Origin: Bacteroides pyogenes
Lineage (GTDB): Bacteria; Bacteroidota; Bacteroidia; Bacteroidales; Bacteroidaceae
Assembly (NCBI RefSeq): GCF_014196225.1
Contig: NZ_JACIDI010000005.1
Coordinates: forward strand, 1-64,000
Direction of reading: 5' to 3'
DNA: 64,000 nt
Numbering within the stretch: the first letter of the stretch is position 1; every line of letters begins with the position of its first letter. The notes under the pieces are model-generated. The model did no database searches, was not told where the DNA came from, and worked only from the letters and a program-made list of their open reading frames with translations. This document shows positions 180-30,719 of this stretch, one piece after another. The position numbers and the translations under genes were made by a program.

Positions 180-3100
180 TTACGGAAAACTGATTTTGAT
201 GATTTCCGGAGTCCGGATTCCCGGTTTCAATTCGCCGTTGATTGAGAAGAACCGGTTGCCGATTCCAACCAATGCCGCTCCCGCGCGGGCGGTCGAAGAA
301 GTCTCCGTTATCTCTTGCCATTCATCGCTCCGTACATTGTACACCAGTACCTTGCGGTTGAAACGGTACCACTCGGCGGGGTGCAGCAAATAATCTTTTG
401 CCGGGGCGCGGAGAGCCGACAGAAAGATATCTTTATTCACCCCTCCCATGCAAAGGATAAGGCTGTCGTTCATCGCCGCCGCCACGCCGCCGCCCAACGA
501 CACGCTCTCTCCGTCGTCGCCCGCAGGTGCGGCAACGGGAATCCACCGTCCCGAAGAGGGGACATACGCATAGCCGTCGACGGAGAGGGTCGGTTCTTTC
601 CCGTCCGCCGCAGGCGCGAAACCGCCCCAAAGGTAGAAACAAGATTCCTTCCCGTTGTGTCCGACCGCCGAAACGGGCTGTATGCGCGGCGGACCGGGAA
701 AATCGGGAAGCGACTGCCACCCTTCGGACAAACGTTGCAAGTCGAGGCATAAGAACGTGTTCGAAGGCTTTCCGTCACGGTTGCCTCCCGCCACGAAAAT
801 CCGCTCTCCCGAAAGCGAAGCGGTGAAGTTGTCCAAGGCAAAAGGCAGCGAGGGCAACGGCTCTGCGAACGTCCGCCGCCGCGACTCGTCCCACCGAAGG
901 CGGTACACACCGTTCATCGCGCCTTTTTGATTCGTTCCTCCGATGCAAACCACTCCGTCGGCAGCGGTTACCGCCGCCCCGTATGCGGCAGGAGCAGGCA
1001 GCTCGCCCACCTTTCTCCACACGAAAACAGAGTCGGCATCGAAGTCCGCCGCATATACATGGCGGTAATACTTCTTCTTCCCGCCCTGAGCGGCCGGGAC
1101 GCCGGGGAAGTTGCAACCTCCCGCTATCAGCAACCGCCCGCTAAGGATGCCGGCATAGCAAGCGGATACCCCCTTGTCGAAACCTTTCTCCCCTTTCGGG
1201 AATCCCTTCATCGCCTGCATCCGGATATCGCTTGCAGGAGTCTGCCGGACTTCGGCACGGAAACCGGAAGCGGGAAGTCCCGCTCCGTTCACCAGATTGG
1301 CACGGGTGAAAGGTTCCCACGCATAACGCACGTAACGGGGACGCGCCACTTTGTCGGCATATACTTTTACTTTGCCGCCCGCCACTTCCGCCTTTGCGGG
1401 ATAGTAAAGCCCTTCCGTCTCCGCCAACTCGAAGGAGCGCAAAGGCATGCCGTCGGCACTGCCCATCGCCTCGCCGTAATCGAATGTCAGCCGGACGGCT
1501 CCTTCACGAAAATCGGCGCTACGGAACAAAGGACCGGAAGGCACTACCGTTTCTTTCCCGTAAGTACTGTGCAACGCCCAACGCGCCAACCGCTCGCCTA
1601 CCGGTTTCTTGTCGGCGGGATGAACGTTCAGCGAATCGCCCCGATCGGTGCATACCGCCATGCCCGTATATGGAACGGAAGCCATCAGCCTCCGCTGACT
1701 GTCGCGGAACCAAGGCCACGAAGGACGGTGGAGGCTCGAAAGCTGCACGTAATAGAAAGGCATGCTTTCATTTTTCCAGTTTTCACGCCAACTGCGGACC
1801 AGCAACCGGAAAAGCTTTTCATGCGTTGTTTCGTTGTGGGCATTCGATTCTCCCTGATACCAGATGACTCCTCTCAGCGGGTATCGTTGCAGCGGAAGAA
1901 TGCCCGACTCGAACAGGTAACACGGCTCGTAAGGATGCCGCGCGTACTTGCCCGCGCTTTTTTTCAGGTTGAGCGCAGCCCTTCCGCGTACCCAATCCTG
2001 AATATAATCGTTTTGCATCCAGTCTTTCAGTATCGCCGGGAATTCATATTCCAGCGTGCGGCGGTCTATCCACGCCTCCGTGGGCGAACCGCCCACGGCA
2101 TTGCAAATCAGTCCTACGGGAACTTGCAGGCTGTCGCGCAGCATCCGCCCGAAATGGTAAGCAACGGCGGAAAAAGCGGCGGCAGTGGAAGGAGTACATG
2201 GCTGCCAGCGGGTATCGGCATAATAGCGAAGGCGGTTGAGCGAGTCGAGCACGGCCGGCTCCCACTCCACCGCGTCGGTGCGCCAACGGGCTTTCATGTC
2301 GTAAAACATCAGCTGCTCGTCCGCAGCCTGCGGAATATCTTCTCCGGCGGAAGCCGCTTCTTTGAGCATAAACTCCATGTTCGACTGTCCGGAGCAAAGC
2401 CATACCTCCCCCACCCACACGTTGCGGAACTCAAACGAGCGGCGGGAACCGGCAATCTTAAGGACAAAAGGACCGCCCGCCCGCATCGGCAGCAAGTCCG
2501 CCTTCCATTTCCCGTCTGTTCCGGCACGTACATTCCGCTGCTGTCCGCCCACAGTTACCGTAACTCTTTCGCCCGCATCGGCAGTGCCGCAGATACTGAG
2601 CGGAACATCCCGCTGAAGCACCATATTGTCGGTATAGAGCGGCGAGAGTTTCAGTCCGCCGTAATCGCCCGTAACGGCGGAATAAACCGTTTTCGCAAGA
2701 AGCGCAGCCCCTTCGGCCGTAGGATGAACGGCATCGGGCAGTAAAAACGGATAAGGATAGAGTGGAGCGTGGAAATCGATGAGCCGGACGGAGGCGCAGC
2801 GGCCAACCGTTTCGATGGCTGCCTGTATCTCTCCGTGCCAATCGCGCGTGCCGGACAAGAAGCGCGGGTGTCTGTCGGCTATCGGCGTCATACGGGCAAT
2901 CAAGATGCGGACATCCGGATTTGCCTGACGGAAGGCGTCTATCAGGGCTATGTAGTCTTTGACGAACGAGTCGCGAAAGTGAGGCCAGTCGCGCGGGTCG
3001 GTATCATTGATACCCAGATGAATGACTGCAATGTCGGGTGCGAATTCAATCGCTTTCCGGTACTCTTCCTGCCGGATATAGGGTCGATGCCCGCTACTCA

Positions 3101-3311
3101 GGAGCGTAGCTCCCGATTTCCCGAAGTTGCCCACTTCGTATCCGTCGCCCAACATCTTTTGGAGCCGGGCTGGATATGCCTGAACCTCCCGGTCGGGCAA
3201 ACCGTATCCGTAGGTGATACTGTTTCCCACACAAGCAATTTTTATACGTTGCCGGGCAGCGGCAACCAGACAAACCAATAGGCAAAAAACGGCAAACAGG
3301 TATCTTTTCAT
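180..3311 (-). CDS. Three-domain SGNH esterase / sialate O-acetylesterase / NanM-like mutarotase
   Basis: 1043 aa with a Sec signal (hydrophobic residues 4-19). Residues about 22-212 form a GDSL/SGNH esterase: Ser31 in GNSITYG, GIND at 100-103, Asp193 and His196 in DAVHP. Residues about 220-690 form a sialate O-acetylesterase: Ser310 in GQSNME, later VIWYQGESN and a VHPADKKPVGERLA stretch. Residues about 701-1043 form a Kelch-type beta-propeller of the cyclically permuted mutarotase family (repeated AGG/GG blades, ending NGELKPGIRTPE), related to NanM. Predicted role: remove O-acetyl groups from sialic acid and equilibrate free Neu5Ac anomers, in the periplasm or outside. Its start overlaps the previous gene's stop by 4 bp (ATGA). 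These activities are usually separate proteins. Function is inferred from families. The gene is strikingly GC-rich. Confidence 0.88.
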   Translation of the reverse strand: MKRYLFAVFCLLVCLVAAARQRIKIACVGNSITYGYGLPDREVQAYPARLQKMLGDGYEVGNFGKSGATLLSSGHRPYIRQEEYRKAIEFAPDIAVIHLGINDTDPRDWPHFRDSFVKDYIALIDAFRQANPDVRILIARMTPIADRHPRFLSGTRDWHGEIQAAIETVGRCASVRLIDFHAPLYPYPFLLPDAVHPTAEGAALLAKTVYSAVTGDYGGLKLSPLYTDNMVLQRDVPLSICGTADAGERVTVTVGGQQRNVRAGTDGKWKADLLPMRAGGPFVLKIAGSRRSFEFRNVWVGEVWLCSGQSNMEFMLKEAASAGEDIPQAADEQLMFYDMKARWRTDAVEWEPAVLDSLNRLRYYADTRWQPCTPSTAAAFSAVAYHFGRMLRDSLQVPVGLICNAVGGSPTEAWIDRRTLEYEFPAILKDWMQNDYIQDWVRGRAALNLKKSAGKYARHPYEPCYLFESGILPLQRYPLRGVIWYQGESNAHNETTHEKLFRLLVRSWRENWKNESMPFYYVQLSSLHRPSWPWFRDSQRRLMASVPYTGMAVCTDRGDSLNVHPADKKPVGERLARWALHSTYGKETVVPSGPLFRSADFREGAVRLTFDYGEAMGSADGMPLRSFELAETEGLYYPAKAEVAGGKVKVYADKVARPRYVRYAWEPFTRANLVNGAGLPASGFRAEVRQTPASDIRMQAMKGFPKGEKGFDKGVSACYAGILSGRLLIAGGCNFPGVPAAQGGKKKYYRHVYAADFDADSVFVWRKVGELPAPAAYGAAVTAADGVVCIGGTNQKGAMNGVYRLRWDESRRRTFAEPLPSLPFALDNFTASLSGERIFVAGGNRDGKPSNTFLCLDLQRLSEGWQSLPDFPGPPRIQPVSAVGHNGKESCFYLWGGFAPAADGKEPTLSVDGYAYVPSSGRWIPVAAPAGDDGESVSLGGGVAAAMNDSLILCMGGVNKDIFLSALRAPAKDYLLHPAEWYRFNRKVLVYNVRSDEWQEITETSSTARAGAALVGIGNRFFSINGELKPGIRTPEIIKISFP

Positions 3312-3973
3312 CGCTTGTTCACGTAAGGTTTAACGATCTCCACCCACTTCAAATAGCCTTTTCCGAGCAGATGGAGCCCATCGTTGGTATATTCGGCTTT
3401 CATCTTTCCGGTCGCTCCGTCCACGAAATGCGAATAAAGGTCGATATACGTCGCCCCTTCCCTCCGGGCAAGCTCCTGCAACTGGCGGTTGATTTCGGGC
3501 ACCATCCGCCACCGGGAAGTGTGTCCCTTAAACATCCCGAACTCGTCCGTCACCGGCAAAACGCTTTGCAGATAGAGCTTGGTGCGGGGGGAATCGCTTT
3601 TGATTTTCCGCACGATTTGCCCGATATGATTCGCAATGGTATCGGCAGAAGCGCCTTTGTTCACGTCGTTGATGCCTATGAGCAGGAATATTTTGGCGGG
3701 CTTTCCTTTCAGAATCGGAGCCAGCCGGTCGTAAACTCCCATGCAGACATCCCCGCTGATGCCGCGGTTCTTCACCCGTTTGTTACGCAGCAATTCCGCC
3801 CATTCGGCGCCGTTCGTGATGCTGTTGCCCAAGAAAACGATATCTTTGGACGATACCGGCAAGGCTTCGAAGAGCGTAGCTCGCTGATAGTAAAAAGTGG
3901 AATATTTCTTTTCCTGCGCATATCCCGACGCGAATGCCCAACATAGAAGGGCGAAGAGAAAAAGTCTTTTCAT
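3308..3973 (-). CDS. Secreted SGNH/GDSL esterase
   Basis: 221 aa with a signal peptide ending near AFASGYAQ. SGNH blocks are visible: Ser51 in FLGNSITNG, the Gly of GISGD, GIND at about 100-103, and Asp198/His201 in NDGLHLLG. The family (PAF-acetylhydrolase-like/9-O-acetylesterase) hydrolyses acetyl esters. Next to a sialidase and a sialate O-acetylesterase it probably deacetylates sialic acid or another sugar. It sits between the GH20 gene (84-bp gap) and the three-domain esterase-mutarotase (4-bp overlap), so it is translationally coupled downstream. The exact substrate cannot be read from sequence. Confidence 0.85.
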   Translation of the reverse strand: MKRLFLFALLCWAFASGYAQEKKYSTFYYQRATLFEALPVSSKDIVFLGNSITNGAEWAELLRNKRVKNRGISGDVCMGVYDRLAPILKGKPAKIFLLIGINDVNKGASADTIANHIGQIVRKIKSDSPRTKLYLQSVLPVTDEFGMFKGHTSRWRMVPEINRQLQELARREGATYIDLYSHFVDGATGKMKAEYTNDGLHLLGKGYLKWVEIVKPYVNKR

Positions 3974-4057: not shown

Positions 4058-6214
4058 TTAAGGCGCAGGCAACTCCCGCTCCGGCGAATAGACCAGCCCG
4101 TCCGCCGCTCTCTCCCCGTCGGGGGTGACAAAGACGCAGGTAAACATCCACTTCACGAGCCGCACTTCGGGGGTTTGAAACCGTCCGACGGGCAGTTTCA
4201 GCAGCACTTTGTTCCATCCTTCGCGCAGGTTGACACGGAGAGGCGGACGTGCGACGCAGTTCTCGTTACCCAACGGTATCTCGTTGCTGCGCGTCCGGTG
4301 GGTCGCCGTCCACACGGGAGGAAGAATCTCCCGGTCGTTGATCCAGATGCGGCTTCCCTTATAATCCCACTGTCCCTGAGGCGGAGGAAGGTCGCTTTCC
4401 GACCGTCCGTAGTTCTGGAACTCCGCCCATAAGCCGACTTCCTGATTGCGGGGAGAATAAACATAAGTATAAGCATAAGCGGTATGATTCTCCCGGGGCG
4501 ACTTATAGAACGCGGGAACCAGCGTGCCCCATACGTGACGCAAGTAGATGCCCGCTCCCACCGCCGGAGCGGTTCCGTAGGTTTTGCCTTCGTAAACGTA
4601 GCTTTCTTCCTGTTTTTCTTCCGGCGGGAACCGCATCGCGAGGTCTCCATGGTTGGGAAAAGCGTCGGTTATCCTCCACTTTACGTTTGTCTGCTTTACA
4701 TAAGCGAACGGATAACCCGCGAATTTCGTCTGTTTGTACCACAGCATCCGTCGCTCGAAATCGGCAAATTCGAGAAATGTTTCCGACTGCCCGTCGACAG
4801 GAAGAATCGTTCCCCGCCCGTCGAAATACTCGCTTCCCCCGCCCAGCCACGCACGTTCGGCAATGGCAAGCATGGCGGGGTAAAAGTTGTTTTCGAGCAG
4901 CATGTTTTGCTCCGCCGACAGTTGACGGTCGTTCCATACACCCACAATCACCCCTGCGATATCGTCGCTCCCCGTTTCGGCGTTGTAAATGCGGCTGTTG
5001 TAAAGCGCCACCAAATCGCCGAACGTATCGAAATGGTTGATGTAGTGGAAACGGGAGTCGATGGCGGGAATGCCTTTCTGAGCCTTGCCCCGGTAACTCC
5101 ACAACTGCGTCATGTCTATTTCTCCCGGTTGGTATTTCCATCCCGGATTCCATGAAATGACTTTTTTTCCTTTGGCGCGGACGTAGGATACCATCTCCGG
5201 CACGAAGCGGGGATTGGTGAATTCCACCTCATCGGTTCCGATATGCAGGTAAGGTACATCGAAGGTTTCGCAGACTTCATCCGTCAAAAGTTTCAGAATT
5301 CTCATTCCTTCCGGGCTTTGCATATCGTGGCGGAAGGTGCGCACGAAGGCTTCGCTATGTCCCGGCATATCTATTTCGGGAATCAACAGCACGTGGCGGG
5401 CTTTGCAGAAGGCGACCAGTTCTTTCGCTTCCTCCAAAGTATAATACTTGCCCGGAAGCCTCGTCATGTTGGCGCTGTCGTTTAGCATCGGGAAAATCTT
5501 GCTTTCGAGACGCCAAGCCTGATTCTCGGTGAGATGCCAGTGGAAGACGTTGATCTTGAATGCCGCCAATGCGTCGATCTCCCGCTTCAATTCCTCCAAC
5601 GGAAGATACCCCCGCCCCACGTCGTGCATGAACCCTCGCATCCGGAAGGCAGGCCAGTCCGTTATCTCGCAACACCGGAGCGATGTCCGCTTACCTTCGG
5701 TTTCGCCCCACTGCGACAATGTCTGCATGGCACGGTAAACCCCGCAATCGGTCACCGCTTCTATGCGGATGCGACGCTTCTCTATACGCAACCGGTAAGC
5801 CTCCTGCTGATTGAGCGGCGCTTCATCGACGGCGGGAACAATAACCACTTCTATCAGCGATGACGCGCGATGATCCGTAGAACCGCCTTTTTGCCTGATC
5901 CACTCCTCCCATTCGGATTGCATGACAGGAGTTTTGAGAGCGACTCTGCCCAAGAGGAAACTCCCCTCTCCCGGCTGAAAAATCTGTGGTTTCGGCAGCA
6001 AATATGAATCTCCTGACAGCCGAAAGCGTGAATGCGGGATATACGCTTCTTTATACTTCGGCAGTAAATATGAATCTCCTGACGGGTGTTCGGGGTTTGC
6101 CGCGCGGACTTCGGGCAGATTCCGGCATAAAGTGTTGCCGCATGCCTCTACCTTTACCGCAAACGCGACGCAGAAAAAACCGCAAAGGAAAAACAACGGA
6201 TAAAGACGCTTCAT
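4058..6214 (-). CDS. GH20 beta-N-acetylhexosaminidase
   Basis: 718 aa with a signal peptide. A GH20b-like N-terminal domain precedes the TIM barrel (from about residue 190, FRMRGFMHDVGRGY). The catalytic Asp-Glu pair is D328-E329 in HIGTDEVEF; barrel motifs NVFHWHLTENQ and PEIDMPGHSEA are intact. Such enzymes remove terminal beta-linked GlcNAc or GalNAc by substrate-assisted catalysis, the logical step after sialidase and galactosidase trimming of host glycans. A C-terminal beta-rich extension follows the barrel. Odd feature: SGDSYLLPK occurs twice near the N-terminus (45-53 and 67-75), from a 66-bp DNA repeat. It lies directly downstream of the sialidase gene with a 2-bp gap. Confidence 0.93.
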   Translation of the reverse strand: MKRLYPLFFLCGFFCVAFAVKVEACGNTLCRNLPEVRAANPEHPSGDSYLLPKYKEAYIPHSRFRLSGDSYLLPKPQIFQPGEGSFLLGRVALKTPVMQSEWEEWIRQKGGSTDHRASSLIEVVIVPAVDEAPLNQQEAYRLRIEKRRIRIEAVTDCGVYRAMQTLSQWGETEGKRTSLRCCEITDWPAFRMRGFMHDVGRGYLPLEELKREIDALAAFKINVFHWHLTENQAWRLESKIFPMLNDSANMTRLPGKYYTLEEAKELVAFCKARHVLLIPEIDMPGHSEAFVRTFRHDMQSPEGMRILKLLTDEVCETFDVPYLHIGTDEVEFTNPRFVPEMVSYVRAKGKKVISWNPGWKYQPGEIDMTQLWSYRGKAQKGIPAIDSRFHYINHFDTFGDLVALYNSRIYNAETGSDDIAGVIVGVWNDRQLSAEQNMLLENNFYPAMLAIAERAWLGGGSEYFDGRGTILPVDGQSETFLEFADFERRMLWYKQTKFAGYPFAYVKQTNVKWRITDAFPNHGDLAMRFPPEEKQEESYVYEGKTYGTAPAVGAGIYLRHVWGTLVPAFYKSPRENHTAYAYTYVYSPRNQEVGLWAEFQNYGRSESDLPPPQGQWDYKGSRIWINDREILPPVWTATHRTRSNEIPLGNENCVARPPLRVNLREGWNKVLLKLPVGRFQTPEVRLVKWMFTCVFVTPDGERAADGLVYSPERELPAP
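5991..6083. repeat. 66-bp-period direct repeat inside the GH20 gene
   Basis: A 27-bp segment at 5991-6017 recurs at 6057-6083 with one mismatch. It encodes SGDSYLLPK twice, 22 codons apart, and a weaker third echo (GEGSFLLGR) follows. It keeps the reading frame. Confidence 0.85.
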
Positions 6215-6216
6215 GA

Positions 6217-7860
6217 CTACTTGGCGGACTTTACAATGTCTTTCAATTTCACCGCTTGGAAGGTCATGTGCGCCACGCTGCTTTCATACAAGATGCCTAC
6301 GGTTTCCTTGTCGATCATGGTCAGACAAGTATACCCCCAGCCGTGTCCTTCGTCCAGCAACAGCTGGTTTTCGGGCAACCAGGTCACTCCTCCGTCCAAG
6401 CTTGCTTTGATGGTGATATGATGACGTCCCTTTGTCGTATTGGGATTGGAGAACAGCAGCACGTCACGGCCGAGTACGTTCTCGTTCGCCTTTACGTTGA
6501 TGAGGCTCGCCATACATACCGACTCGGGCAAGCTCTTGCGTGAAGAAACATGTTCGGTCCATGTCTTTCCCAAATCTTTCGTTATGGATACGGCACGGCT
6601 TCCGCCTCGATTGTCGCGCATATTGAGCATCAAAACGCCCGGTTCTATCTCCGCTACTTGCGCTTCGGTGGTATTGGTACGCGCAAGGTTGTGCATCTTC
6701 CACGTCTCTCCGCGGTCTTTGCTGTACATGATAGCCGCATTCGGCACGCGGGTGGAATCGATAAACTGGGTGGGGAATACCAATGTGCCGTCGCTCATCG
6801 TTATTCCGCGACCGGGACCTTGAAGTAGGAAATACCATGACGGATCTTTCACCTGCTCCGTAACATTAATCGGCTCCGACCATGTCTTACCGTCGTCCGT
6901 GCTCTTTGCCATCACCAACTGGGCGGTATGATTCAAATCCATGCCGGGATGCGAGCTCCACCAGGCGCGTTGGTTACCCATGCCGTGCGTCCATGCGGCA
7001 ACAATCCAAACGGTATTCGTCTTCGTATCCACTAAAATGGAAGGATCGCCCACTCCGTTTTGCGCGGCGGGGAGTCCGTCATACTCACCGAAAGCAAGAG
7101 GAAGACGCATTTTCTCCCATGTTTTTCCGCCATCGGTACTGCGGCTTAAGCCCACATCCACATGCTCCTGCAAATCGACGCTGGAGTTGTAACGGACATC
7201 GTACACCCCCAGTAAAGTTCCTTTGTTCGTAGTGACCAAACCCGGAATACGGAACGCTGCCGAACCGTCGTCGCCCGCATGGCGAACGCCGACTCCCATC
7301 CGATGCACGATCTGCTCGGGCGATGACGCATGCCATTGCGCTTCCTTTCCATCTATTTTCACGGAACACAGTTGGGAAGTTATTCGGGTAGTTAAGGAGG
7401 TTTCCGGCTTCATCTGCAAGCTGATCCAGAAAAAGTTGACACCGGGAAACAATTTGCGATCGGCTTTCAGTCGTACCTTTCCGGAGGGGCGGACAACCTC
7501 TGCGCATTTGACGGAATAAGACGGATTTGCTTGCAAAGTACCTGCCGTACCGCGATGGCTCGAGATATATTCCACCGGTGCAAAACGCTTTTTGTCGCGG
7601 TCTTGCAAAGCTTCCGTTCCTCCATAATATAGCTTGACAGCTTGTATATCGCTTGCCGAAGCGTTTTTACCGAAGTCCAACACAACCTCATCCAACACCC
7701 GGCTCTCTTTTGCATCCAACCGTAAATAAAGCAGCACATTGTCTTGTCGCTCTATCAGAACCGGTATTTGCGTCTCGTGCACAAATACAGTATCTGCTGC
7801 TTTCGCACAGAAAGCACTAATCAACAGAATAAAAAAAAGCAAATAACGTTTTTTCTTCAT
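6217..7860 (-). CDS. nanH: Exo-alpha-sialidase (GH33)
   Basis: 547 aa with a signal peptide (to about residue 21). Residues about 25-180 form the N-terminal beta-sandwich typical of Bacteroides sialidases. The six-bladed propeller follows, with FRIP at 203-206 and five Asp boxes at about 241-248 (STDGGKTW), 320-327, 380-387, 426-434 (degenerate) and 487-494. Probable carboxylate-binding arginines are R204, R415 and R479; a probable nucleophilic Tyr lies in WGYTCL (about 510). It releases terminal sialic acid from glycoconjugates. It is the first gene of the four-gene block nanH-GH20-SGNH-fusion, with a -7 box 29-36 bp upstream of its start. Family assignment is secure; linkage preference is not readable. 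Confidence 0.96.
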   Translation of the reverse strand: MKKKRYLLFFILLISAFCAKAADTVFVHETQIPVLIERQDNVLLYLRLDAKESRVLDEVVLDFGKNASASDIQAVKLYYGGTEALQDRDKKRFAPVEYISSHRGTAGTLQANPSYSVKCAEVVRPSGKVRLKADRKLFPGVNFFWISLQMKPETSLTTRITSQLCSVKIDGKEAQWHASSPEQIVHRMGVGVRHAGDDGSAAFRIPGLVTTNKGTLLGVYDVRYNSSVDLQEHVDVGLSRSTDGGKTWEKMRLPLAFGEYDGLPAAQNGVGDPSILVDTKTNTVWIVAAWTHGMGNQRAWWSSHPGMDLNHTAQLVMAKSTDDGKTWSEPINVTEQVKDPSWYFLLQGPGRGITMSDGTLVFPTQFIDSTRVPNAAIMYSKDRGETWKMHNLARTNTTEAQVAEIEPGVLMLNMRDNRGGSRAVSITKDLGKTWTEHVSSRKSLPESVCMASLINVKANENVLGRDVLLFSNPNTTKGRHHITIKASLDGGVTWLPENQLLLDEGHGWGYTCLTMIDKETVGILYESSVAHMTFQAVKLKDIVKSAK

Positions 7861-7888: not shown

Positions 7889-7896
7889 CAAAGATA
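7889..7896 (-). promoter_or_regulatory. -7 box upstream of the sialidase block
   Basis: The minus strand reads TATCTTTG, exact to TAnnTTTG, in the 168-bp gap after the upstream esterase gene. No -33 TTG at normal spacing was found. It suggests the four-gene sialidase block can be transcribed separately from the long upstream operon. Confidence 0.5.
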
Positions 7897-8028: not shown

Positions 8029-9102
8029 TTATTCTATCAGGTTTCGTATAACCGGTGTCAATAAATCCGCATACCGCATCATGCCTAAATCCGTAAAATG
8101 AATACCGTCGACCGTGGCCTCACCATCTGTTCCGAGCATGTCTTTCGATGAAACCAGAATGATATTTTGTTCGTTTTTCTGTTTCAGCTCATTGAAAAGC
8201 ATATTCAACACTTGATTCTTCGACTTCACCTCTTCAGCTATCCGGTTATCATACAAAGTGTGGGTAAAGATTGGATCTTCTACAAAAATGACAGGAGTAA
8301 GCGGTTGTTTATCGCGGATAACCTTATAAAAAGCCTCCATCCGCTCCTTCATCTGATCAACCGAAGCATTGGGAGCAAAATCCAGAATAATTGCAGACGC
8401 ATCTACTTGAGCAATCACTTCTGCAACCTCTAAATCCAGAAAAGCGTTTCCACTGAAGCCGAGATTGATACATTCGCGATTCAATCTGCGTGATATAATA
8501 TTGGTATGTGCCATCCCCGGACGGGAAGCACAACCGCCCTGCAAGATGCTGGTTCCGTAAAACACTATCGGTTTTCTGCGAACGGGAAGGTTTACCGCAG
8601 GTTGTTCTAAAAAAGACAAAGAATCGATTCCGATGGAGAGAGAACAGACACCATCGTAAAGCGGCAAATAAAGCATAAACTCTCTGTCTTCGACAGACAT
8701 ATTGGAAATAATGGTGGCTTCGTTCTTTTTACCTGTGGGCCATCCTGCATTGACAAAACGCCACTCGGCGTTTTTCTCCAGGCAATAAAGGTCCACTCCC
8801 TTTATACCGATAGAAGTCATATGGGCCATGCCATAATTTTGAAGCACTTCCCACCTTACAGCTATTTTTGTAGAATTAGTGCGAAAGCGCAAAGACATTC
8901 CCGCCGAATGACGACTTAATTTCCACAACTTCGGACGGGAAGTCTGCTCCAGCGAATCCGGCAACCGCGCATATCGCATATGAGTAGCTTGCGTCGCTTT
9001 CCCTAACAGCGGGAATGGAGCCGCGTCATAGTAAACGAGTTGTGCCTGTAACGTACATAAAAACAAGCACAATATACTGAAAGCAAATATCCTTTTCATC
9101 AT
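8029..9102 (-). CDS. Secreted GxDLY/GDSL-type esterase
   Basis: 357 aa with a signal peptide (to about residue 20). The N-terminal beta-rich domain carries GVDLY at 102-106, the signature of the GxDLY domain that precedes the Lipase_GDSL_3 SGNH domain. The catalytic part starts with Ser185 in YGTSILQGG. The Asp-His pair is in VDGIHFTDLG near the C-terminus. Probably a carbohydrate acetyl-esterase. Its start overlaps the stop of the phosphodiester glycosidase gene by 4 bp. A 168-bp gap separates it from the sialidase block. The substrate is unknown; O-acetylated sialic acid or another acetylated sugar of the same glycan are the reasonable options. Confidence 0.8.
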   Translation of the reverse strand: MMKRIFAFSILCLFLCTLQAQLVYYDAAPFPLLGKATQATHMRYARLPDSLEQTSRPKLWKLSRHSAGMSLRFRTNSTKIAVRWEVLQNYGMAHMTSIGIKGVDLYCLEKNAEWRFVNAGWPTGKKNEATIISNMSVEDREFMLYLPLYDGVCSLSIGIDSLSFLEQPAVNLPVRRKPIVFYGTSILQGGCASRPGMAHTNIISRRLNRECINLGFSGNAFLDLEVAEVIAQVDASAIILDFAPNASVDQMKERMEAFYKVIRDKQPLTPVIFVEDPIFTHTLYDNRIAEEVKSKNQVLNMLFNELKQKNEQNIILVSSKDMLGTDGEATVDGIHFTDLGMMRYADLLTPVIRNLIE

Positions 9103-20227: not shown

Positions 20228-20243
20228 TGCGTGATTTTTTAAA

Positions 20244-21874: not shown

Positions 21875-24800
21875 TTAGAATGTTAACTTTACCCCCATCG
21901 TATAAGTTCTTTGCTGGGGATAGTATCCGTTGTTTACTGCGGGTGATTCCGGATCAATATTATACTTGATTAGGCTGCTCAGAGTAAACAAATTGTATCC
22001 TTCCACATACAACCTCAATGCTTGTATGCCTGTTGAATATAACCATTTTTTAGGGAAATTATATCCTAACTGCGCTGTTTTCAAGCGTAAATAATCACCT
22101 TTCCTATACCAGAAAGTAGAGGAAAAACCATTATTATTACTTGGTCCGGCAATCTCTAAACGAGGGAATTCTGCATTACGATTTTCCGGAGTCCATGAGT
22201 TCTCCACTAGAAAAGTCGGAGAATTTCCGCCATGATAAAATGGCTTTGTGAAAGATGTATTATCTTGCACTCCTTCAGAACCTGTAGCGGTATATTGTCC
22301 CGTCAATGCTACAACACTATTCAACCCCCAAGAAAAAAGTAAGTCCAAATCGAATCCTCTCCAATTACCAAAAAGATTCAATGAGCCAGTGTGGGTGGGA
22401 GTAGAACTTTTGCCTACATATCCCTGATCTTGAGCTGCTGTTATGATACCGTCACCATTTCTATCGACATATTTAATATAGCCGGGAAGGGCTTTATAAC
22501 CTCTAACTGTGGCAGAATTTGCTATTTCTTCATCTGACTGAAACAATCCATCAGCAATAAACCCATATTTTGCTCCGATCTGTTTACCCGTAGCCCTTTG
22601 ATATTCCGGAGAATTGTCAGAATCACCGGCATACTTGAGCCAGCGACCATACGCATACGACCAAATCAATTTAGCTCCATAATTAAAATCTCTAATATTA
22701 TTATGGTGAGTTAAAGTAATTTCATAGCCTTTATAGTCACATTTGTTCGAATTTGCATATTGATAATAATATCCTCCTCTTGACGGAGAAAATGAACCGG
22801 TTACTCCTGACAACTTATCGAATTCATATTTATAAAAAACATCTATTTCTGCTCCTAATAAACCATTCCACAAAGTTGCGTCAACTCCCAAGTTGTAATT
22901 TAAGCATTCAGACCATTTCAAGTATGGATTTCCTAAAACAGAAGCGTACAGCATTGACTGGCTACTTCCTCCCAATATAATCGCATTTTTTGATAAATTC
23001 ATCAAATTTCTCCATTGAAAAGGCTTTAAATTACTTGTTGCCGTTTTTCCTGCACCGATTCTAAACTTAAGATTATTTATAACCGAAGAGACGTTAAACC
23101 AATCTTCTTTATTAATTCTCCAACCAACAGATATACCCGGTAATGTTATCCAACGTTTATTCATTCCACCGAACAAATAACTACCATCGTAACGCAAGGA
23201 TGCTTCCAAATAATATTTATCATCATAATTATAATTCAAACGTCCCACAAAACCTGCGACACGCCTATGGCCACTATAACCACCTATGCCCGGATATTTT
23301 TCAGATCCGTCTCCCGTCCGATTTGTTATTTTATTAAGTTCATCCAATTGAATAAAGTCTAATCCATATCCGGTTGCACTCAAAGCATTACTCTTGTTCT
23401 CACGAGTCTCTGCCAATAACAAGCCTCCAACTGAATGTTTGTCGAACTTATTATTATAGACAATACTTGTTTGTGTAGTAAATGCATACCCGCGAGAAGC
23501 AGCCTCACTCAAGCTTATAGTGTTGCCTACGGCATCATAGCCTTTATGATAAGTTAACTCCGAAGAGTCTGCCGTAGGAAGATTCATTATCATCACGTCA
23601 TAAGGATTATTTAATATCTTACTAAAAGTAAAGGTCAGATCATAAGCACCTTGAAACTTAAAACTCAAACCTTTTAACCAAGGAGCATCATATTGCAGAA
23701 CAAAGTTGGATTGAAAATAAGAATAATTAGATCTACTATATCCTGATTCATTAATAGACGCCAATGGTGCTACCGGAGAAGAAGCTGTTGGTGTAGAGAC
23801 ATTATAACGTTTCCCTTGATATTCGTAAGTGTCAGGCACATAAGGCAAAGCTCTAATGATTTGCTGCGGCACATTATGCCAATCGTTCGGATTAGCAGAA
23901 TAGCGCGGAGCATTTCTTTTTTCAACACGTCCGGAGACACCTAACTGAAAAGTCAAACTCTTAGTCAACTTAGCATCAATATTAGAGCGAAGATTCAATC
24001 GCTCATAATTATAGTTGTCGATATTTCCGTTTTCTTTTAAATAACCTATGGAAGCGAAAAACTTAATCCTTTCACTACCACCGGTAGCTGATATATTATG
24101 GTGAGTCCGGGTACCTGTCCCATAAATCTTATCATACCAGTTAGTGTTTCCCCAACCGTCTTTGCCTTCTCTCATTTTTTGTACCATCTTATTAGTAAAA
24201 ACAATAGGATCGCCCTGCAATTCACGGGCCTTATTATACCAATAAGCATATCCCGGTCCGTCCAACCATTGTTGTTGAGCAGCATTTTGACTGATACCTA
24301 CGGTTCCGGTATATGTGATAGACATTTTATCTACTTGTCCTTTCTTGGTGGTCACGATAAACGCCCCACTTGCATCAAGGCCGTATACTGCCACGGCAGA
24401 AGCATCCTTTAGAATAGAAACAGATTCTATTACATTCGGGTCTAATCCATTAAAGTCGGCAGAAGTGCGCCGGATTCCGTCAATTACATAAATTATACCG
24501 TCTTGTCCACGCATGGTTAAAGCAGCATTATCCGATCCGGGCTGTCCGCTGGACTGCACGGCAGCTACTCCCGCAATGCGCGATCCTACAATATTACTGA
24601 TACTCATTGTCGGAGCTTTCAGTAATTCTTTATCAGACACGGTAGATACAGCTCCGGTAATACTGCCTCGTTTTTGTGTTCCGTATCCCACAACTACAAT
24701 CTCATCCAAAGAAGCCACATCATCTTTCATTTTAACCGAAACGGAACTACGCCCATTTACTCTAACTTCTTGGGTAGTCATTCCAATGTAAGAAAAGATT

Positions 24801-25024
24801 AATATATCTTTATCTTTAGCGTTAATACTGTACTTACCATTAATATCTGTAACAGTACCTATCGTAGTACCTTTCACAGCCACAGAAACTCCGGGCAACG
24901 GTTCATCATTACCATCGGTTACAGTCCCTTTTATCACATTTTGTGCAGAGATATTAATGCTACACATAAATGCGATAATCAATGAGGTTATAAACCTCGC
25001 ATTCCATCTGATTCTTTTTTTCAT
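21875..25024 (-). CDS. SusC/RagA-family TonB-dependent outer-membrane transporter
   Basis: 1049 aa. Signal peptide, then a carboxypeptidase-regulatory-like domain (IKGTVTDGNDEPLPGVSVAV, about 31-110), a TonB-box-like DEIVVVGYGTQKRG at the plug start, the plug, and a 22-strand barrel. The plug carries the SusC-type sequence DGIRRTSADFNGLDPNVIESV. It would import glycan fragments to the periplasm with the SusD partner. It lies 22 bp after the DUF4434 gene, so it has no room for its own promoter and should be read from upstream. Confidence 0.96.
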   Translation of the reverse strand: MKKRIRWNARFITSLIIAFMCSINISAQNVIKGTVTDGNDEPLPGVSVAVKGTTIGTVTDINGKYSINAKDKDILIFSYIGMTTQEVRVNGRSSVSVKMKDDVASLDEIVVVGYGTQKRGSITGAVSTVSDKELLKAPTMSISNIVGSRIAGVAAVQSSGQPGSDNAALTMRGQDGIIYVIDGIRRTSADFNGLDPNVIESVSILKDASAVAVYGLDASGAFIVTTKKGQVDKMSITYTGTVGISQNAAQQQWLDGPGYAYWYNKARELQGDPIVFTNKMVQKMREGKDGWGNTNWYDKIYGTGTRTHHNISATGGSERIKFFASIGYLKENGNIDNYNYERLNLRSNIDAKLTKSLTFQLGVSGRVEKRNAPRYSANPNDWHNVPQQIIRALPYVPDTYEYQGKRYNVSTPTASSPVAPLASINESGYSRSNYSYFQSNFVLQYDAPWLKGLSFKFQGAYDLTFTFSKILNNPYDVMIMNLPTADSSELTYHKGYDAVGNTISLSEAASRGYAFTTQTSIVYNNKFDKHSVGGLLLAETRENKSNALSATGYGLDFIQLDELNKITNRTGDGSEKYPGIGGYSGHRRVAGFVGRLNYNYDDKYYLEASLRYDGSYLFGGMNKRWITLPGISVGWRINKEDWFNVSSVINNLKFRIGAGKTATSNLKPFQWRNLMNLSKNAIILGGSSQSMLYASVLGNPYLKWSECLNYNLGVDATLWNGLLGAEIDVFYKYEFDKLSGVTGSFSPSRGGYYYQYANSNKCDYKGYEITLTHHNNIRDFNYGAKLIWSYAYGRWLKYAGDSDNSPEYQRATGKQIGAKYGFIADGLFQSDEEIANSATVRGYKALPGYIKYVDRNGDGIITAAQDQGYVGKSSTPTHTGSLNLFGNWRGFDLDLLFSWGLNSVVALTGQYTATGSEGVQDNTSFTKPFYHGGNSPTFLVENSWTPENRNAEFPRLEIAGPSNNNGFSSTFWYRKGDYLRLKTAQLGYNFPKKWLYSTGIQALRLYVEGYNLFTLSSLIKYNIDPESPAVNNGYYPQQRTYTMGVKLTF

Positions 25025-25046: not shown

Positions 25047-26123
25047 TTATTGTATAAAATGTTCACAATATCTGTTGTATAGATGCCCCGCTTGTAAATA
25101 TGCAGAATTTGGACTCATAAAGTGAGAAAACTCAAACGTTATTGCATTTTCCATTCCTGCTTTTCTTGCGGCCTCCAATTTCAAAAGTAGTTTTTCCCAT
25201 TTGATGGGTAAAAAGCGAATTGGCATATCTCGGTCGAAAGATTCAATATTGGTCCAGCACCTCATGCCATATTTATCAGCCAGTTTTTTATTGACAAGCA
25301 AATAGTCATATAATTCATGGTAGTCAACTTGGCCGTCTTGAAATGCAAGAATATCAACAGCTCCTTTTACATTATGCAAAATTTCATCCCATTCTTCCTC
25401 ATGTTCTTTTACAGACAATGCTTTGTCACCTGCCATGACTTGATCCGTTTTTATTCCATGAATATAAGGAGAAACCAACGTGGTCAGATTACCGGATACC
25501 GCTTTGGCATGTTTACCAACCTCCGCATATATTTTTGACATGTTTTTAGTGCGCCGACTTATCTCCTGCGACAAGTACCACCCCTTAAATGATTTATGGT
25601 GACCGTATTTCTTCCAGACCTCATCGATGAGATACATATTCAGATCTATTTCTTTCTGAAACAACCCCTCTTGCCAATACTTTCCAGAATCATACATTCC
25701 AAAGTAAAATGCCATATCATATTTATCAGATAGCGTCAGAAACATTTCGACCAAATCGACAGGCGGATAATATACGGCCTCTTTCTCCAACAGCGATTTG
25801 AAAGGAGAAGCAATCCATTTCCCCAATCCGGCACGAATCAGAACAACTGTGTTAATCCCCATCTTTTTCATTGCCCTGAAATCCGTGTCCCACTCTTTTG
25901 CTCCCCAGTTCTGATGGGGAATATCCCAACTTATTTCATCTAAAAAAGTAGCTGTTATGGGCATACCTTTCATCACATGAGGTGTCGCAAACGAATCTAA
26001 AGATTCATCGCTCTTTACTCTCCTCTTATTATTAAAAGAGGAACAAGCTGTCAGAAACCTGCTTCCGACAACCAATGAACATGCTGTTGCTGCTGTTTTA
26101 AGAAAATTACGACGTCCTACCAT
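25047..26123 (-). CDS. DUF4434 protein with twin-arginine-like signal
   Basis: About 358 aa from ATG 26123 (MVGRRNFLKTAATACS); a start at 26138 is also possible. The signal has the R-R-x-F-L-K core of Tat substrates plus a later Cys (FLTAC), so it could be a lipoprotein. The body matches DUF4434, a TIM-barrel family distantly related to glycoside hydrolases: FLDEISWDIPHQNWG, WYLSQEISRRTK, FEFSHFMSPNSAYL. It is a clear paralogue of the gene at 27686-28792, and the two flank a sugar-porter gene. No activity is established for the family, so substrate and reaction are unknown. Confidence 0.78.
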   Translation of the reverse strand: MVGRRNFLKTAATACSLVVGSRFLTACSSFNNKRRVKSDESLDSFATPHVMKGMPITATFLDEISWDIPHQNWGAKEWDTDFRAMKKMGINTVVLIRAGLGKWIASPFKSLLEKEAVYYPPVDLVEMFLTLSDKYDMAFYFGMYDSGKYWQEGLFQKEIDLNMYLIDEVWKKYGHHKSFKGWYLSQEISRRTKNMSKIYAEVGKHAKAVSGNLTTLVSPYIHGIKTDQVMAGDKALSVKEHEEEWDEILHNVKGAVDILAFQDGQVDYHELYDYLLVNKKLADKYGMRCWTNIESFDRDMPIRFLPIKWEKLLLKLEAARKAGMENAITFEFSHFMSPNSAYLQAGHLYNRYCEHFIQ

Positions 26124-26259
26124 AATTTCATTATTCAATAATTACACAGTAAACACCTTAAGAACTCTGTTTCCTGAAAAACATCATACCCTCCCATCCC
26201 TTCTCTTCCCTACTTTTACCGCTATATGGAGACAGAGAAGCATATTGTCTACAACTTGG

Positions 26260-27685: not shown

Positions 27686-28792
27686 TTACTTTATTTCGAA
27701 ATATTCTCTGTATCTGTCATATAAATGTCCTGCCTGCAAATATGCCGATTGGGGACTCATAAAGTGAGAGAACTCGAACGTTATCGCTTTATCATATCCC
27801 GCCCGTTTGGCAGCTTCCAGTTTCATCCGGAGCTTATCAAACTTAATAGGAAGAAAATTAATAGGCATATCGCGATCGAAAGATTCCGCATTAGTCCAGC
27901 ATTGCATGCCATACTTATCCGCCAGTTTTTTATTTACCGAGAAAAAAGCATCTAATTCATCATAATCGATATGTCCGTCTTGAAAAGCGCACGCATCTAC
28001 CACATCATGAATCCCATCGAATATCTCATTCCACTCTTTCTCGTGTTGCTGCACAGAAACAGCATCTTCATTCGTCAGTTTATTAGTACCCATAATGGCC
28101 TTTTTCCCATCAATCCAAGGAGAAATGAATGTAGGCAGTCCGTTCGAAACATCCTTACACTGTTTCCCCATGGCATGAAAAGCATCTATAGCCCCTTTAG
28201 TCTGCCGGCTGATTTCTCCACTGATATACCAGCCTCCGAAGCTCTTGTATTTTTCGCCGTACATTTTCCATACCTCGTCAATCACATACTTATTATCCTC
28301 GATTTCCCAGCTTAAATCCTTTGTATCCCAATAACGGCCGGAGTCGTACAGACCAAAATAAAACTTCATTTTATACTTCTCCGCCAATCGCAAAAACATA
28401 TCCAACAAGTCGACTGATGGCATATAACAACCTTTATTCAATAAATAAGGAGAAGGATAAGTTATAAATTTACGATATCCGGAGCGAATCATGATTACCG
28501 TATCGATTCCGATTCGCTTCATGTATTGAAAATCGAGGTCCCATTCCTTCTCTCCCCAATTCTGATGAGGAATATCGTGGGAAATCTCATCCAAAAAGGT
28601 CCCCGTAATGTTTAAACCGTTCTTCTTTGGAACAATCAAACGACCATCTCCCATCCATTCTTCCGGCATCTGCTCCGGAGAAGGAATTCCGGTTTTATTA
28701 CTCTCTTTAGCCAGCAACGAAGGGGCGATGAAAGCCGAAGCTCCCGCCAAAGCTGCACTCTTTAAAAAGTCTCTGCGATTATTTTCTCTCAT
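27686..28792 (-). CDS. DUF4434 protein with twin-arginine-like signal (paralogue)
   Basis: 368 aa. It begins MRENNRRDFLKSAALAGA, a Tat-like signal (RRDFLK). The DUF4434 barrel shows FLDEISHDIPHQNWGEKEWD, GWYISGEISRQTKG and TFEFSHFMSPQSAYLQAGH, nearly the same as the paralogue at 25047. It stands between the FAD-dependent oxidoreductase gene (46-bp gap) and the MFS gene (4-bp gap). Probably a glycoside-hydrolase-like enzyme in the periplasm or on the membrane; activity unknown. Confidence 0.8.
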   Translation of the reverse strand: MRENNRRDFLKSAALAGASAFIAPSLLAKESNKTGIPSPEQMPEEWMGDGRLIVPKKNGLNITGTFLDEISHDIPHQNWGEKEWDLDFQYMKRIGIDTVIMIRSGYRKFITYPSPYLLNKGCYMPSVDLLDMFLRLAEKYKMKFYFGLYDSGRYWDTKDLSWEIEDNKYVIDEVWKMYGEKYKSFGGWYISGEISRQTKGAIDAFHAMGKQCKDVSNGLPTFISPWIDGKKAIMGTNKLTNEDAVSVQQHEKEWNEIFDGIHDVVDACAFQDGHIDYDELDAFFSVNKKLADKYGMQCWTNAESFDRDMPINFLPIKFDKLRMKLEAAKRAGYDKAITFEFSHFMSPQSAYLQAGHLYDRYREYFEIK

Positions 28793-28838: not shown

Positions 28839-30719
28839 TCATTCGATATATTCTCCGGTTATATTCACCTGCTTTCTATTGAAAGGATCTAAAACCTGAT
28901 CGATAAGCAGTGCCATCTCTCCTCTTAGAATATCTCGTTTAGGGTTAAGATTCTGTAAACCATAATTCCGCCATATTTCATCCAAGTCGACGGTTGCATC
29001 CAAACCTTCCGTTTCGGAGATGTTCCTGACAAGTGAAACGGCTTCTTGGATGCTTAAGGTTTCTGCGCTCTTTTTCTCAAATATTTCTTTTGATTTCGGG
29101 TATATTTCAAACAAACCATCCAACTCGGAAATTAATAAAAGTGTATCCGCTCTTAGCCAAGTCTGATTGCTCCATCCTACATTTTTCCCTACTCCTTTGA
29201 GTATTCCTGTAGCCCCGATACGCTGATAAGGAATGAACTTCACATCCGAAACGGGAACATCCAAATAAGGAAGCAGGTAACCTTTCGCATGTAAAACTGC
29301 ATTTTGGACTTCGCGGACAGGAACTTGTCCGATTGCGCATTTTTTCTTCACGCTCAAAGCCGCCAATGCTCCGGCTGCCTGTCCGATCTGCAGGACAACC
29401 GGTTGCAAACGTGTGGTTCCGTTAATTATATTAGAAACAGATATAGATTTTTCCGCAACGATGAGTCCTTCTACGTTAAGGGGAATCAATACTCCTAACG
29501 GAAGACCGTACGAAGGTATCGGATGAAAATAAAGATTCGGCAATTCCTCATGACCATGATAGCGGGTGTGATGGTGGTCTACCGGATAATCGCCTACTGC
29601 AATGGCAGTACGGTATAATTTTTGTTTTTGCTCATAAGGGGCTGTCACGTCATTCAGGGTAAACCTGACGAGCCCATGAATCCTGCGTGATTCCCTGTGA
29701 TAAGGAATAAAAGGTAAACGGTCTGCCGTAGGATATTCGTCATCCGCCAGCCCCAACGTGTTATACCCCAGCTCGTGTTGGAGGAAGTAGACAAAGCACA
29801 TTGTGTGATGCTTTGCAAGCTCCAATGCCTTGGCACGCTCTTCCGGTGTTTTTTCTATCAGATTGACGTAATAATCATTCCCCTCTATGGGCCAATTAAT
29901 CATATATTTATGGTTGGGAAGTTTCCCATAAGTAATCATCATCTCCTTAGACCACAAGCGGTCGGGTTCTTTCGGTGACAAACACAGCGAGTTATCACAG
30001 GCGCAGGCAAACACTGCGGGATCATATCCTTCAGGGCGGGGAATCGTTACATCTTTCCCATAATCTTTCAGTATGGCTACATAAGTCATATCCTGCACGA
30101 TATCATTCGATTTTTCAGGAGCCACATCTTCTTGTGTGTCGCTACGGCTCTCCATCCCAATGTCGTATTTCACTCCACACATCTTGGCAATATCTCCTAA
30201 TTCGGTTGCATCAATCAATATCTCTGCACGGATAGTCTTCGTTTTCTGATCCTCTGTCAGTACTTCAACAATCCATTCGTTCTGCTCTTTTTTCACAGTC
30301 TTCAAAAAGGTGTTTTTCCATATGCGCAGGTTCTTTTCCGCAGCAGCCATTTCATGAAAAATATTATTGCCGACCGAAGGCTCGAAAAGGACATGGCTTA
30401 CCCATCCCGTCTTGAGAGAGTCTATTCCTCCATAATAATCGGATAACCTGTCTTTAAATTCGCCCCATAATCCTGCCGGTAAATTATAGTTACCGTCCAC
30501 AGCGCTGACCCCTGCCGAGGTCAACATGCCACCCAACCAAGCCGTTTCTTCGATTATCAATACATTCACCCCCATTCGGGCAGCTTGTATACCTGATGTC
30601 ATGCCACTGGCGCCGCCGCCTACAACCAAGACATCTGTCCGGTTTACATCCGAACGCTTGCAAGATGTAAAAATCAAGACAAAAATAAGAATGCAAAAAA
30701 GGAAATATAGGTTTTTCAT
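28839..30719 (-). CDS. Exported FAD-dependent oxidoreductase (FAD_oxidored family)
   Basis: 626 aa. Lipoprotein-like signal ending LIFTSC (Cys about 20). A classic dinucleotide-binding motif VLVVGGGASGMTSG follows at about 30-43, then EETAWLGGMLTS, which is typical of the FAD_oxidored family common in Bacteroidetes glycan loci. The C-terminal 120 residues hold an SLH-like segment (NPKRDILRGEMALLIDQV). It may oxidise a sugar hydroxyl in the periplasm. How an FAD enzyme with a Sec-type lipobox would receive its cofactor is unclear. First gene of the long operon, with a good promoter 46-76 bp upstream. Confidence 0.83.
   Translation of the reverse strand: MKNLYFLFCILIFVLIFTSCKRSDVNRTDVLVVGGGASGMTSGIQAARMGVNVLIIEETAWLGGMLTSAGVSAVDGNYNLPAGLWGEFKDRLSDYYGGIDSLKTGWVSHVLFEPSVGNNIFHEMAAAEKNLRIWKNTFLKTVKKEQNEWIVEVLTEDQKTKTIRAEILIDATELGDIAKMCGVKYDIGMESRSDTQEDVAPEKSNDIVQDMTYVAILKDYGKDVTIPRPEGYDPAVFACACDNSLCLSPKEPDRLWSKEMMITYGKLPNHKYMINWPIEGNDYYVNLIEKTPEERAKALELAKHHTMCFVYFLQHELGYNTLGLADDEYPTADRLPFIPYHRESRRIHGLVRFTLNDVTAPYEQKQKLYRTAIAVGDYPVDHHHTRYHGHEELPNLYFHPIPSYGLPLGVLIPLNVEGLIVAEKSISVSNIINGTTRLQPVVLQIGQAAGALAALSVKKKCAIGQVPVREVQNAVLHAKGYLLPYLDVPVSDVKFIPYQRIGATGILKGVGKNVGWSNQTWLRADTLLLISELDGLFEIYPKSKEIFEKKSAETLSIQEAVSLVRNISETEGLDATVDLDEIWRNYGLQNLNPKRDILRGEMALLIDQVLDPFNRKQVNITGEYIE

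What the first reader, a model, noticed from the sequence alone, without database searches (positions are those of the whole stretch)
180..30719. Long sialoglycan locus with phosphodiester-directed and unassigned enzymes: candidate undescribed pathway
Sialidase, GH20, NanS-like esterases and nanLET are known parts. Around them, apparently in one about 18-gene transcription unit, sit an NAGPA phosphodiester glycosidase, a GHL10 protein fused to a metallophosphoesterase, two further GHL10 paralogues, two DUF4434 paralogues, a DUF5009 acyltransferase-like protein, an FAD lipoprotein and a second sugar transporter. Together they suggest a target that is sialylated, O-acetylated and contains a sugar-phosphodiester. 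The substrate is inference.
Basis: partly seen in the sequence, partly recalled or inferred. Interest (0 to 1): 0.82.

Follow-up and report, generated by a model that had tools for sequence, protein, structure and literature searches.

The report
Phosphodiester-glycan cassette spliced into sialic locus
What looked like one long sialic-acid operon in a Bacteroides bacterium is two sugar-eating systems side by side, an ordinary sialic-acid block and an independent 14-gene cassette that likely digests a phosphate-linked bacterial sugar polymer; in several related species such cassettes sit in facing pairs between long inverted repeats, and one pair of genomes shows the whole block flipped, so the pair may act as a DNA switch.

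Summary
The 18 genes are there, but they are not one sialoglycan pathway. They fall into a 14-gene cassette (30719 to 8029) and a 4-gene sialidase block (7860 to 180), each with its own promoter-like site found again in relatives; nanTLE lies between the cassette and its divergent ROK regulator. In 119 genomes of the genus the cassette marker DUF4434a tracks a GlcNAc 2-epimerase (33 of 39 carriers, 3 of 80 others) and not the sialidase or nanL. G032, without a sialidase match, keeps the cassette with SASA esterase, GHL10s and metallophosphoesterase. So the phosphodiester and ester part of the reading stands as a lead; the sialylated target does not. The epimerase link, the Cwp19/mannosidase-like fold of DUF4434 and the GpdQ-like phosphoesterase make a ManNAc-containing bacterial wall or capsule polymer the likeliest, untested, substrate. 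Unexpected result: in five sister genomes two opposed cassettes lie between inverted repeats of about 1.7 kb (transporter tail plus epimerase), and G251 and G238 carry the same roughly 32-kb interior in opposite orientations. The window itself is a single-cassette form without such repeats. Switching is inferred.

The parts
35255..36463 (+). ROK-family (NagC-like) regulator; ortholog of the ROK gene that stands directly beside FADox/DUF4434a in relatives
   Evidence: NagC/ROK models; best full-length matches next to FADox or DUF4434a 79-82%, more distant ones down to about 46%
33617..34855 (-). nanT-like MFS transporter
   Evidence: named by position beside nanL, no NCBIfam model reached its cut-off
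32666..33589 (-). nanL, N-acetylneuraminate lyase type (DHDPS family)
   Evidence: matches of 79-100% identity in 42 of 119 genomes, window included, one of them partial
31470..32654 (-). nanE, AGE-type N-acylglucosamine 2-epimerase
   Evidence: (8bry, E 1e-128)
30765..30803 (-). predicted promoter/operator of the cassette: AT-rich site plus TATGTTTG -7 box
   Evidence: 28.9 bits, next best site in the 64-kb window 13.4 bits
28839..30719 (-). FAD-dependent oxidoreductase (PF12831)
27686..28792 (-). DUF4434a, TIM-barrel glycosidase-like protein with TAT-type signal; E193 and E303 invariant after strands 4 and 7
   Evidence: 4h41 = BT_0435, 90% identity
26260..27681 (-). SP-family MFS sugar transporter
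26139..26259 (.). gap at the place where relatives carry the PUL-type GlcNAc 2-epimerase; no remnant found
25047..26138 (-). DUF4434b paralogue
21875..25024 (-). SusC-type TonB-dependent transporter
20244..21863 (-). SusD-type lipoprotein
18542..20269 (-). DUF5018 protein after SusD (true start probably inside the listed ORF, which overlaps SusD)
17089..18495 (-). GHL10-DUF4985 a
15678..17018 (-). GHL10-DUF4985 b
12968..15643 (-). GHL10-DUF4985 c fused to a metallophosphoesterase with intact metal-site motifs
11538..12968 (-). SASA-family esterase of the cassette
   Evidence: 64% ortholog in G032, which has no sialidase match
10119..11534 (-). DUF5009 membrane protein, weakly NagX-like C-terminus (35 bits, cut-off 480)
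9099..10115 (-). NAGPA-family phosphodiester glycosidase-like protein with the HPRTAIG and NLDGGGSS stretches
8029..9102 (-). GxDLY-SGNH esterase, last gene of the cassette
7889..7896 (-). TATCTTTG, predicted -7 box of the sialidase block's own promoter
6217..7860 (-). BNR sialidase
4058..6214 (-). GH20 hexosaminidase
3308..3973 (-). SGNH esterase
180..3311 (-). GDSL esterase + SASA + NanM-type mutarotase in one protein, end of the sialidase block
   Evidence: terminator-like hairpin below 180 seen by eye

Best explanation
The stretch is a 14-gene PUL cassette and a 4-gene sialidase block lying side by side, each predicted to run from its own promoter, and the cassette likely breaks down a phosphodiester-linked, ester-bearing N-acetylhexosamine polymer of bacterial origin rather than a sialoglycan. 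Shown by sequence: the cassette and its ROK regulator occur apart from sialidase and nanL in other genomes; relatives carry a GlcNAc 2-epimerase after the transporter; in the window that gene is missing while nanTLE, with its own epimerase nanE, sits between ROK and the cassette. Inferred working order: surface GHL10 proteins and the SusC/D pair cut and import the polymer; SASA and SGNH esterases strip acyl groups; the GHL10-phosphoesterase and the NAGPA protein open phosphodiesters; the exported DUF4434 proteins, which carry a clan GH-A type Glu pair, release a terminal HexNAc, most likely ManNAc; the SP transporter brings it in; the epimerase (here NanE) turns ManNAc into GlcNAc. Sialic-acid breakdown also yields ManNAc, so one epimerase could serve both, which would explain why the two loci merged here. 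In sister species two cassettes face each other between inverted repeats, and the G251/G238 pair shows that an inversion has exchanged which cassette follows the shared arm.
Confidence: 0.55

Rival explanations
1. One pathway: sialidase, esterases, phosphodiester glycosidase and GHL10-phosphoesterase act in turn on one sialylated, O-acetylated, phosphodiester-containing glycan.
For: Adjacency is kept in the window and its near twin, and in five sister genomes the sialidase borders the two-cassette site. SASA/SGNH esterases occur in both blocks.
Against: No association of DUF4434a with the sialidase and a negative one with nanL; 16 of 39 carriers without a sialidase match; the cassette next to the sialidase is a different one in 4 of the 5 sister genomes; separate promoter-like sites; the cassette's SASA esterase persists in G032, which has no sialidase match.
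Confidence: 0.12
2. The cassette is independent of sialic acid but targets a host glycan with phosphodiesters or alpha-GlcNAc, such as GlcNAc-phospho-mannose N-glycans, GPI glycans or gastric mucin.
For: NAGPA is named for the mammalian mannose-6-phosphate uncovering enzyme (alignment to 6pki); GH89 in sister cassettes; B. [quoted passage not shown] BT_0439 seen on GOS and milk oligosaccharides (PMC5238430, passages).
Against: A GlcNAc 2-epimerase has no obvious use for a host glycan without sialic acid; no fucosidase, sulfatase or N-glycan endoglycosidase among the 14 window cassette proteins or the 20 proteins of relatives scanned, though not every sister-cassette gene was scanned; DUF4434a's nearest solved structure outside its own family is Cwp19, with GH164 tied.
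Confidence: 0.27
3. The facing cassettes in sister genomes are a frozen duplication; the single inversion between G251 and G238 is a chance rearrangement or assembly error and not a switch.
For: No recombinase gene at the loci among the listed matches (list cut); repeat identity in G238 is only 83.5%; G238 is a 30-contig draft; only one pair of genomes shows both orientations; the epimerase copies are most alike within the genome in only 2 of 5 genomes, and the epimerase beside the same cassette differs (80.7%) between G251 and G238, which a bare inversion does not explain.
Against: The 17.5-kb and 13.8-kb inverted blocks end in the repeats and the outer flanks stay collinear at 96-98%; the transporter-tail repeats are most alike within the genome in 4 of 5 genomes, as recombination between arms would give; in G206, G248 and G151 contigs end at transporter residues 320, 300 and 333, close to the repeat start at 291-303.
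Confidence: 0.4

Closest known systems
nan locus of Bacteroidetes (nanLET, NanOU, NanH, esterases; as in Tannerella and B. fragilis, recalled)
   Same: nanL, nanE and the sialidase-GH20-SGNH-SASA/NanM genes also form the nan PUL of G149 (L031)
   Different: here they are split by a 14-gene cassette, and no relative of the G149 nan SusD (taken as NanU by position) is found in the genome; no nanT match was seen in L031
B. thetaiotaomicron BT_0435 region, with operons BT0439-BT0443 and BT0453-BT0449 and sialidase BT_0455
   Same: DUF4434a is 90% identical to BT_0435 (4h41); the two operons run in opposite directions by their numbering, next to the sialidase number, as in the five sister genomes
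   Different: the B. theta genome was not read here; the layout is inferred from locus tags in the passages; substrates reported unknown
Site-specific invertible SusC/SusD loci of B. fragilis and BT2264-BT2268
   Same: inversion linked to expression of SusC/D genes (passages in PMC6080902 and PMC12632263)
   Different: here the repeats are up to about 1.8 kb of coding sequence and the inverted part is about 32 kb holding two whole PULs; no recombinase seen at the loci; the window itself has no such repeat
DUF4434 / 4h41, GHL10 / Cwp19 (and E. coli DigH, recalled)
   Same: fold and, for DUF4434, a Glu pair in clan GH-A positions
   Different: no activity is known for DUF4434 in the papers searched (0 papers)

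Membership tests
Polysaccharide utilization locus (SusC/SusD-type) | adjacent SusC and SusD genes with glycan-active enzymes | tested here: met
nan sialic-acid locus | nanL, nanE, nanT and sialidase | tested here: met
   for nanTLE and the sialidase block, not for the cassette; nanT by position and MFS family only
nan sialic-acid locus | NanO/NanU outer-membrane pair | tested here: not met
   no match at E 1e-20 in G000 (42 candidates scored) to the G149 nan SusD; cassette SusD scores 20 bits against the NanU model, cut-off 425
One sialoglycan pathway over 180-30719 | blocks co-occur in other genomes | tested here: not met
   p 0.17 with sialidase, negative with nanL; but 7 of 23 double carriers are linked within 45 kb
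NAGPA phosphodiester glycosidase (PF09992) | family profile and conserved C-terminal motifs | tested here: met
NAGPA phosphodiester glycosidase (PF09992) | hydrolysis of a sugar-1-phosphodiester | not testable with these tools
   needs enzyme assay
Calcineurin-like phosphodiesterase | fold and metal-ligand motifs | tested here: met
Clan GH-A glycosidase (DUF4434a) | TIM barrel with Glu after strands 4 and 7 | tested here: met
beta-N-acetylmannosaminidase (DUF4434a) | release of ManNAc | not testable with these tools
   inference from the epimerase link and mannosidase-like neighbours
Invertible PUL locus | long inverted repeats flanking the cassette in the window | tested here: not met
   only direct repeats in window 1-40000 at E 1e-10
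Invertible PUL locus | inverted repeats and both orientations in relatives | tested here: met
   (repeats in 5 of the 5 two-arm loci read whole; both orientations in one pair)
Tsr-type site-specific inversion | recombinase gene at the locus | tested here: inconclusive
   none of the listed PF00589 matches lies in the five loci, but the list was cut

The most novel reading that the evidence does not exclude
Bacteroides carry an invertible two-PUL switch: a fixed arm (ROK repressor, DUF4434a, SP transporter, GlcNAc 2-epimerase) that catabolises ManNAc, and two interchangeable whole PULs facing each other between transporter/epimerase repeats of about 1.7 kb, each built for a different phosphodiester-linked bacterial wall or capsule polymer such as the ManNAc-GlcNAc-phosphate linkage unit of wall teichoic acid. 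DUF4434 would be a new beta-N-acetylmannosaminidase family. The window shows a locus where one cassette was locked in and the epimerase handed over to an inserted sialic-acid operon.
Probability: 0.14. Interest if true: 0.87.

Novelty: new variant of a known kind. Interest (0 to 1): 0.62.

Why it matters
It separates a widespread but unassigned PUL module from sialic acid and gives it a concrete, testable product (ManNAc) and target class (phosphodiester polymers of other bacteria). The listings of the searches run here show no paper on a Bacteroides PUL for teichoic-acid-like polymers and none that holds the word DUF4434. It also points to the BT_0435-BT_0455 region of a laboratory strain, whose in vivo inducer is reported unknown, as a possible PUL-scale inversion locus.

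Tried and rejected
One sialoglycan operon: dropped on co-occurrence and promoter-like sites. A remnant of the lost epimerase or of a truncated transporter in the window: none found; the only full epimerase match is nanE. Shared ROK operator at nanT or the sialidase: none (best near the sialidase 9.4 bits). Recombinase at the inversion loci: none among listed matches, list cut. Anti-phage reading of the odd enzymes: no PADLOC match at E 1e-5 for 4 of 4 proteins tried. GPI-glycan target: fits the phosphoesterase and DUF5009 but gives no role to a GlcNAc 2-epimerase; kept only as part of a rival. ADP-ribose or ribose target suggested by B. oleiciplenus L041 (ADP-ribosylglycohydrolase; ribokinase-like start read by eye) was not followed further. 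Locus-tag literature searches for the BT genes gave many unrelated salmon-clone papers. The 80-locus survey sees at most 10 kb either side, so its 1 of 80 sialidase count does not test linkage at 25-40 kb; searches do. In one search the label nanE_AGE mixes NanE-type and PUL-type epimerases.
Full report
What is there. Eighteen minus-strand ORFs run from 30719 to 180. In order of transcription: FAD oxidoreductase, DUF4434a, SP transporter, DUF4434b, SusC, SusD, DUF5018, GHL10a, GHL10b, GHL10c fused to a metallophosphoesterase, SASA esterase, DUF5009 (weakly NagX-like C-terminus), NAGPA, GxDLY-SGNH esterase; then sialidase, GH20, SGNH esterase, and a GDSL-SASA-NanM protein. Upstream lie nanE, nanL and a nanT-like transporter (31470-34855) and a divergent ROK gene (35255-36463). 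The window is the start of contig C5 of a 3.39-Mb genome. Its nearest relative in the set is G074, whose contig of 31881 bases has the length of the B. pyogenes DSM 20611 contig (DUF4434a 98% identical), so the genus is taken as Bacteroides.

Not one transcription unit, by sequence. The sialidase has a 168-bp upstream gap with TATCTTTG. Aligned with eight other sialidase upstream regions, seven (G251, G238, G171, G191, G179, G206, G248) have TATCTTTA or TATCTTTG at the same place and G149 does not. For the cassette, 24 intergenic regions between ROK and FADox or DUF4434a were taken from relatives. Twelve of 24, two of them duplicates, share an AT-rich 22-base site within 4 mismatches, followed by a TAnnTTTG box; the other twelve match it poorly. 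A matrix built from the 16 non-duplicate regions with up to 6 mismatches, without the window, finds one strong site in the window, 28.9 bits at 30770-30803, just upstream of FADox; the next best is 13.4 bits. The strong sites of relatives score 37-51 bits, so the window site is a weaker version. Nothing comparable lies before nanT or the sialidase. So the cassette keeps a ROK-linked promoter-like site, and nanTLE sits between ROK and that site. That ROK binds there is inference.

The cassette stands alone elsewhere. In 151 genomes of the family, DUF4434 (a or b, E 1e-20) is in 9, the sialidase (1e-30) in 26, nanL (1e-30) in 50, NAGPA (1e-10) in 3. G002, G003, G012, G018 and G032 have DUF4434 with neither sialidase nor nanL; the short G012 stretch shows no other cassette gene. 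G149 carries the cassette near 1.97 Mb and a nan PUL with nanL, nanE, a SusC/SusD pair, NanM, sialidase, GH20, SGNH and SASA genes near 1.50-1.51 Mb. Most of these genes lie in the window on the two sides of the cassette, but not the SusC/SusD pair. No relative of that SusD (taken as NanU by position) is found at E 1e-20 in G000 or G074.

Statistics in the genus. In 119 genomes, window included, DUF4434a (E 1e-140) is in 39, the sialidase (1e-150) in 58, nanL (1e-100) in 42 and a PUL-type epimerase (at least 70% identical to that of G149) in 36. DUF4434a and that epimerase occur together in 33 genomes, DUF4434a alone in 6, epimerase alone in 3, neither in 77 (Fisher p 7e-20). With the sialidase the numbers are 23, 16, 35, 45 (p 0.17); with nanL 8, 31, 34, 46 (p 0.02, negative). 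These p-values ignore shared ancestry and missing contigs. The epimerase is within 6 kb of DUF4434a in 31 of 37 carriers other than the window and its twin. Its best solved relatives are the GlcNAc 2-epimerases 6f04 and 2gz6. In the window this gene is absent at its usual place, a 121-bp gap, and NanE is the only epimerase match there. Of the six carriers without it, G000, G074 and G237 have nanL and a NanE-type epimerase; G151 and G248 have contig ends at that point; G176 has neither.

The inversion. In G251, G238, G171, G191 and G179 the locus reads: ROK, (FADox), DUF4434a, transporter, epimerase, cassette 1, then cassette 2 in the opposite direction, a second epimerase, a transporter fragment whose match begins at residue 291-303, and the sialidase. 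ROK was seen in four of the five; the G179 stretch ended inside FADox. The two transporter-tail/epimerase arms are inverted repeats: 1709 bp at 98.4% in G179, 1782 bp at 97.5% in G191, 507 bp at 96.8% plus 1163 bp at 90.9% in G251, 529 bp at 96.8% plus 1173 bp at 82.7% in G171, 1708 bp at 83.5% in G238. G251 and G238 have collinear flanks (97.6% and 96.1%) and an inverted interior in blocks of 17.5 kb (93.9%) and 13.8 kb (95.8%). So each has a different cassette next to the shared arm. The transporter tails are most alike within the genome in 4 of 5 genomes, G238 being the exception; the epimerases are so in only 2 of 5 (G179, G191), and the epimerase beside the same cassette is only 80.7% alike between G251 and G238, so a bare inversion is not the whole history and gene conversion between arms is likely. 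G206 has one contig running from epimerase to epimerase with two facing cassettes; the contigs of G206, G248 and G151 end at transporter residues 320, 300 and 333, and the sialidase contigs of G206 and G248 start about 140 and 80 bases before the sialidase. The cassette that faces the sialidase in G191 is the window's cassette, 69-86% identical over its 11 proteins. The window has it in the other direction, with no second cassette, no epimerase arm and no inverted repeat. That inversion is a phase-variable switch is inferred; invertible SusC/D loci with a site-specific invertase are known (passages in PMC6080902 and PMC12632263).

Literature. [quoted passage not shown] PMC5238430 (passages) lists SusC BT_0439 on galactooligosaccharides and milk oligosaccharides. 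PMC10579405 (one passage) reports BT_0455 up with mucin. PMC13114119 and PMC10939037 were read in passages only and describe promoter inversions and inversions near susC/susD. No paper holds the word DUF4434. Searches for PUL inversion by repeats and for teichoic-acid or ManNAc PULs listed none that describes this system, judged from titles, abstract starts and the passages named; subscription papers are mostly not in the library.

Verdict. The ordinary part is the sialic-acid block. The part worth attention is the independent cassette, its likely ManNAc product, and the finding that in sister species it belongs to a two-cassette inversion locus.

Noticed in passing
G255:C1 (L128-L130, L138, L139): In this single-contig genome the ROK-FADox-DUF4434a arm, the two-cassette interior and the sialidase lie at three distant places (1.95, 5.22 and 1.07 Mb); the transporter match covers 305 of 473 residues and both epimerases lack about their first 61-68 residues. 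Rearrangement or assembly error.
   Followed up: partly
window 31164-31312: Imperfect 22-bp tandem repeat (about 5-6 copies) between nanE and FADox, at the junction where nanTLE meets the cassette; the G074 (B. pyogenes) contig ends about 0.9 kb upstream of FADox, near this region.
   Followed up: no
L041 (B. oleiciplenus) 2608-19830: DUF4434 proteins beside ADP-ribosylglycohydrolases, a sugar-kinase-like gene (by eye) and a 728-aa phosphoesterase-DUF4434 fusion; this genome also has two DUF4434a copies 25 kb apart in the same direction (G262).
   Followed up: partly
L119:12757-14232: GDPD fused to a 3-keto-disaccharide hydrolase domain (PF06439) beside a DUF4855 protein in the G179 locus; may link oxidation of sugars to phosphodiester cleavage.
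   Followed up: no
window 38766-42065: YceG and 2-oxoacid ferredoxin oxidoreductase genes lie beyond ROK here and on the ROK side of DUF4434a in B. faecalis, B. finegoldii and, in part, B. oleiciplenus, B. timonensis and L048: the chromosomal site is conserved in these.
   Followed up: yes
window 44555-50211: AcrB-type RND efflux operon (pump, membrane-fusion protein, outer-membrane channel).
   Followed up: no
window 56976-57059: 21-bp tandem repeat, four copies.
   Followed up: no
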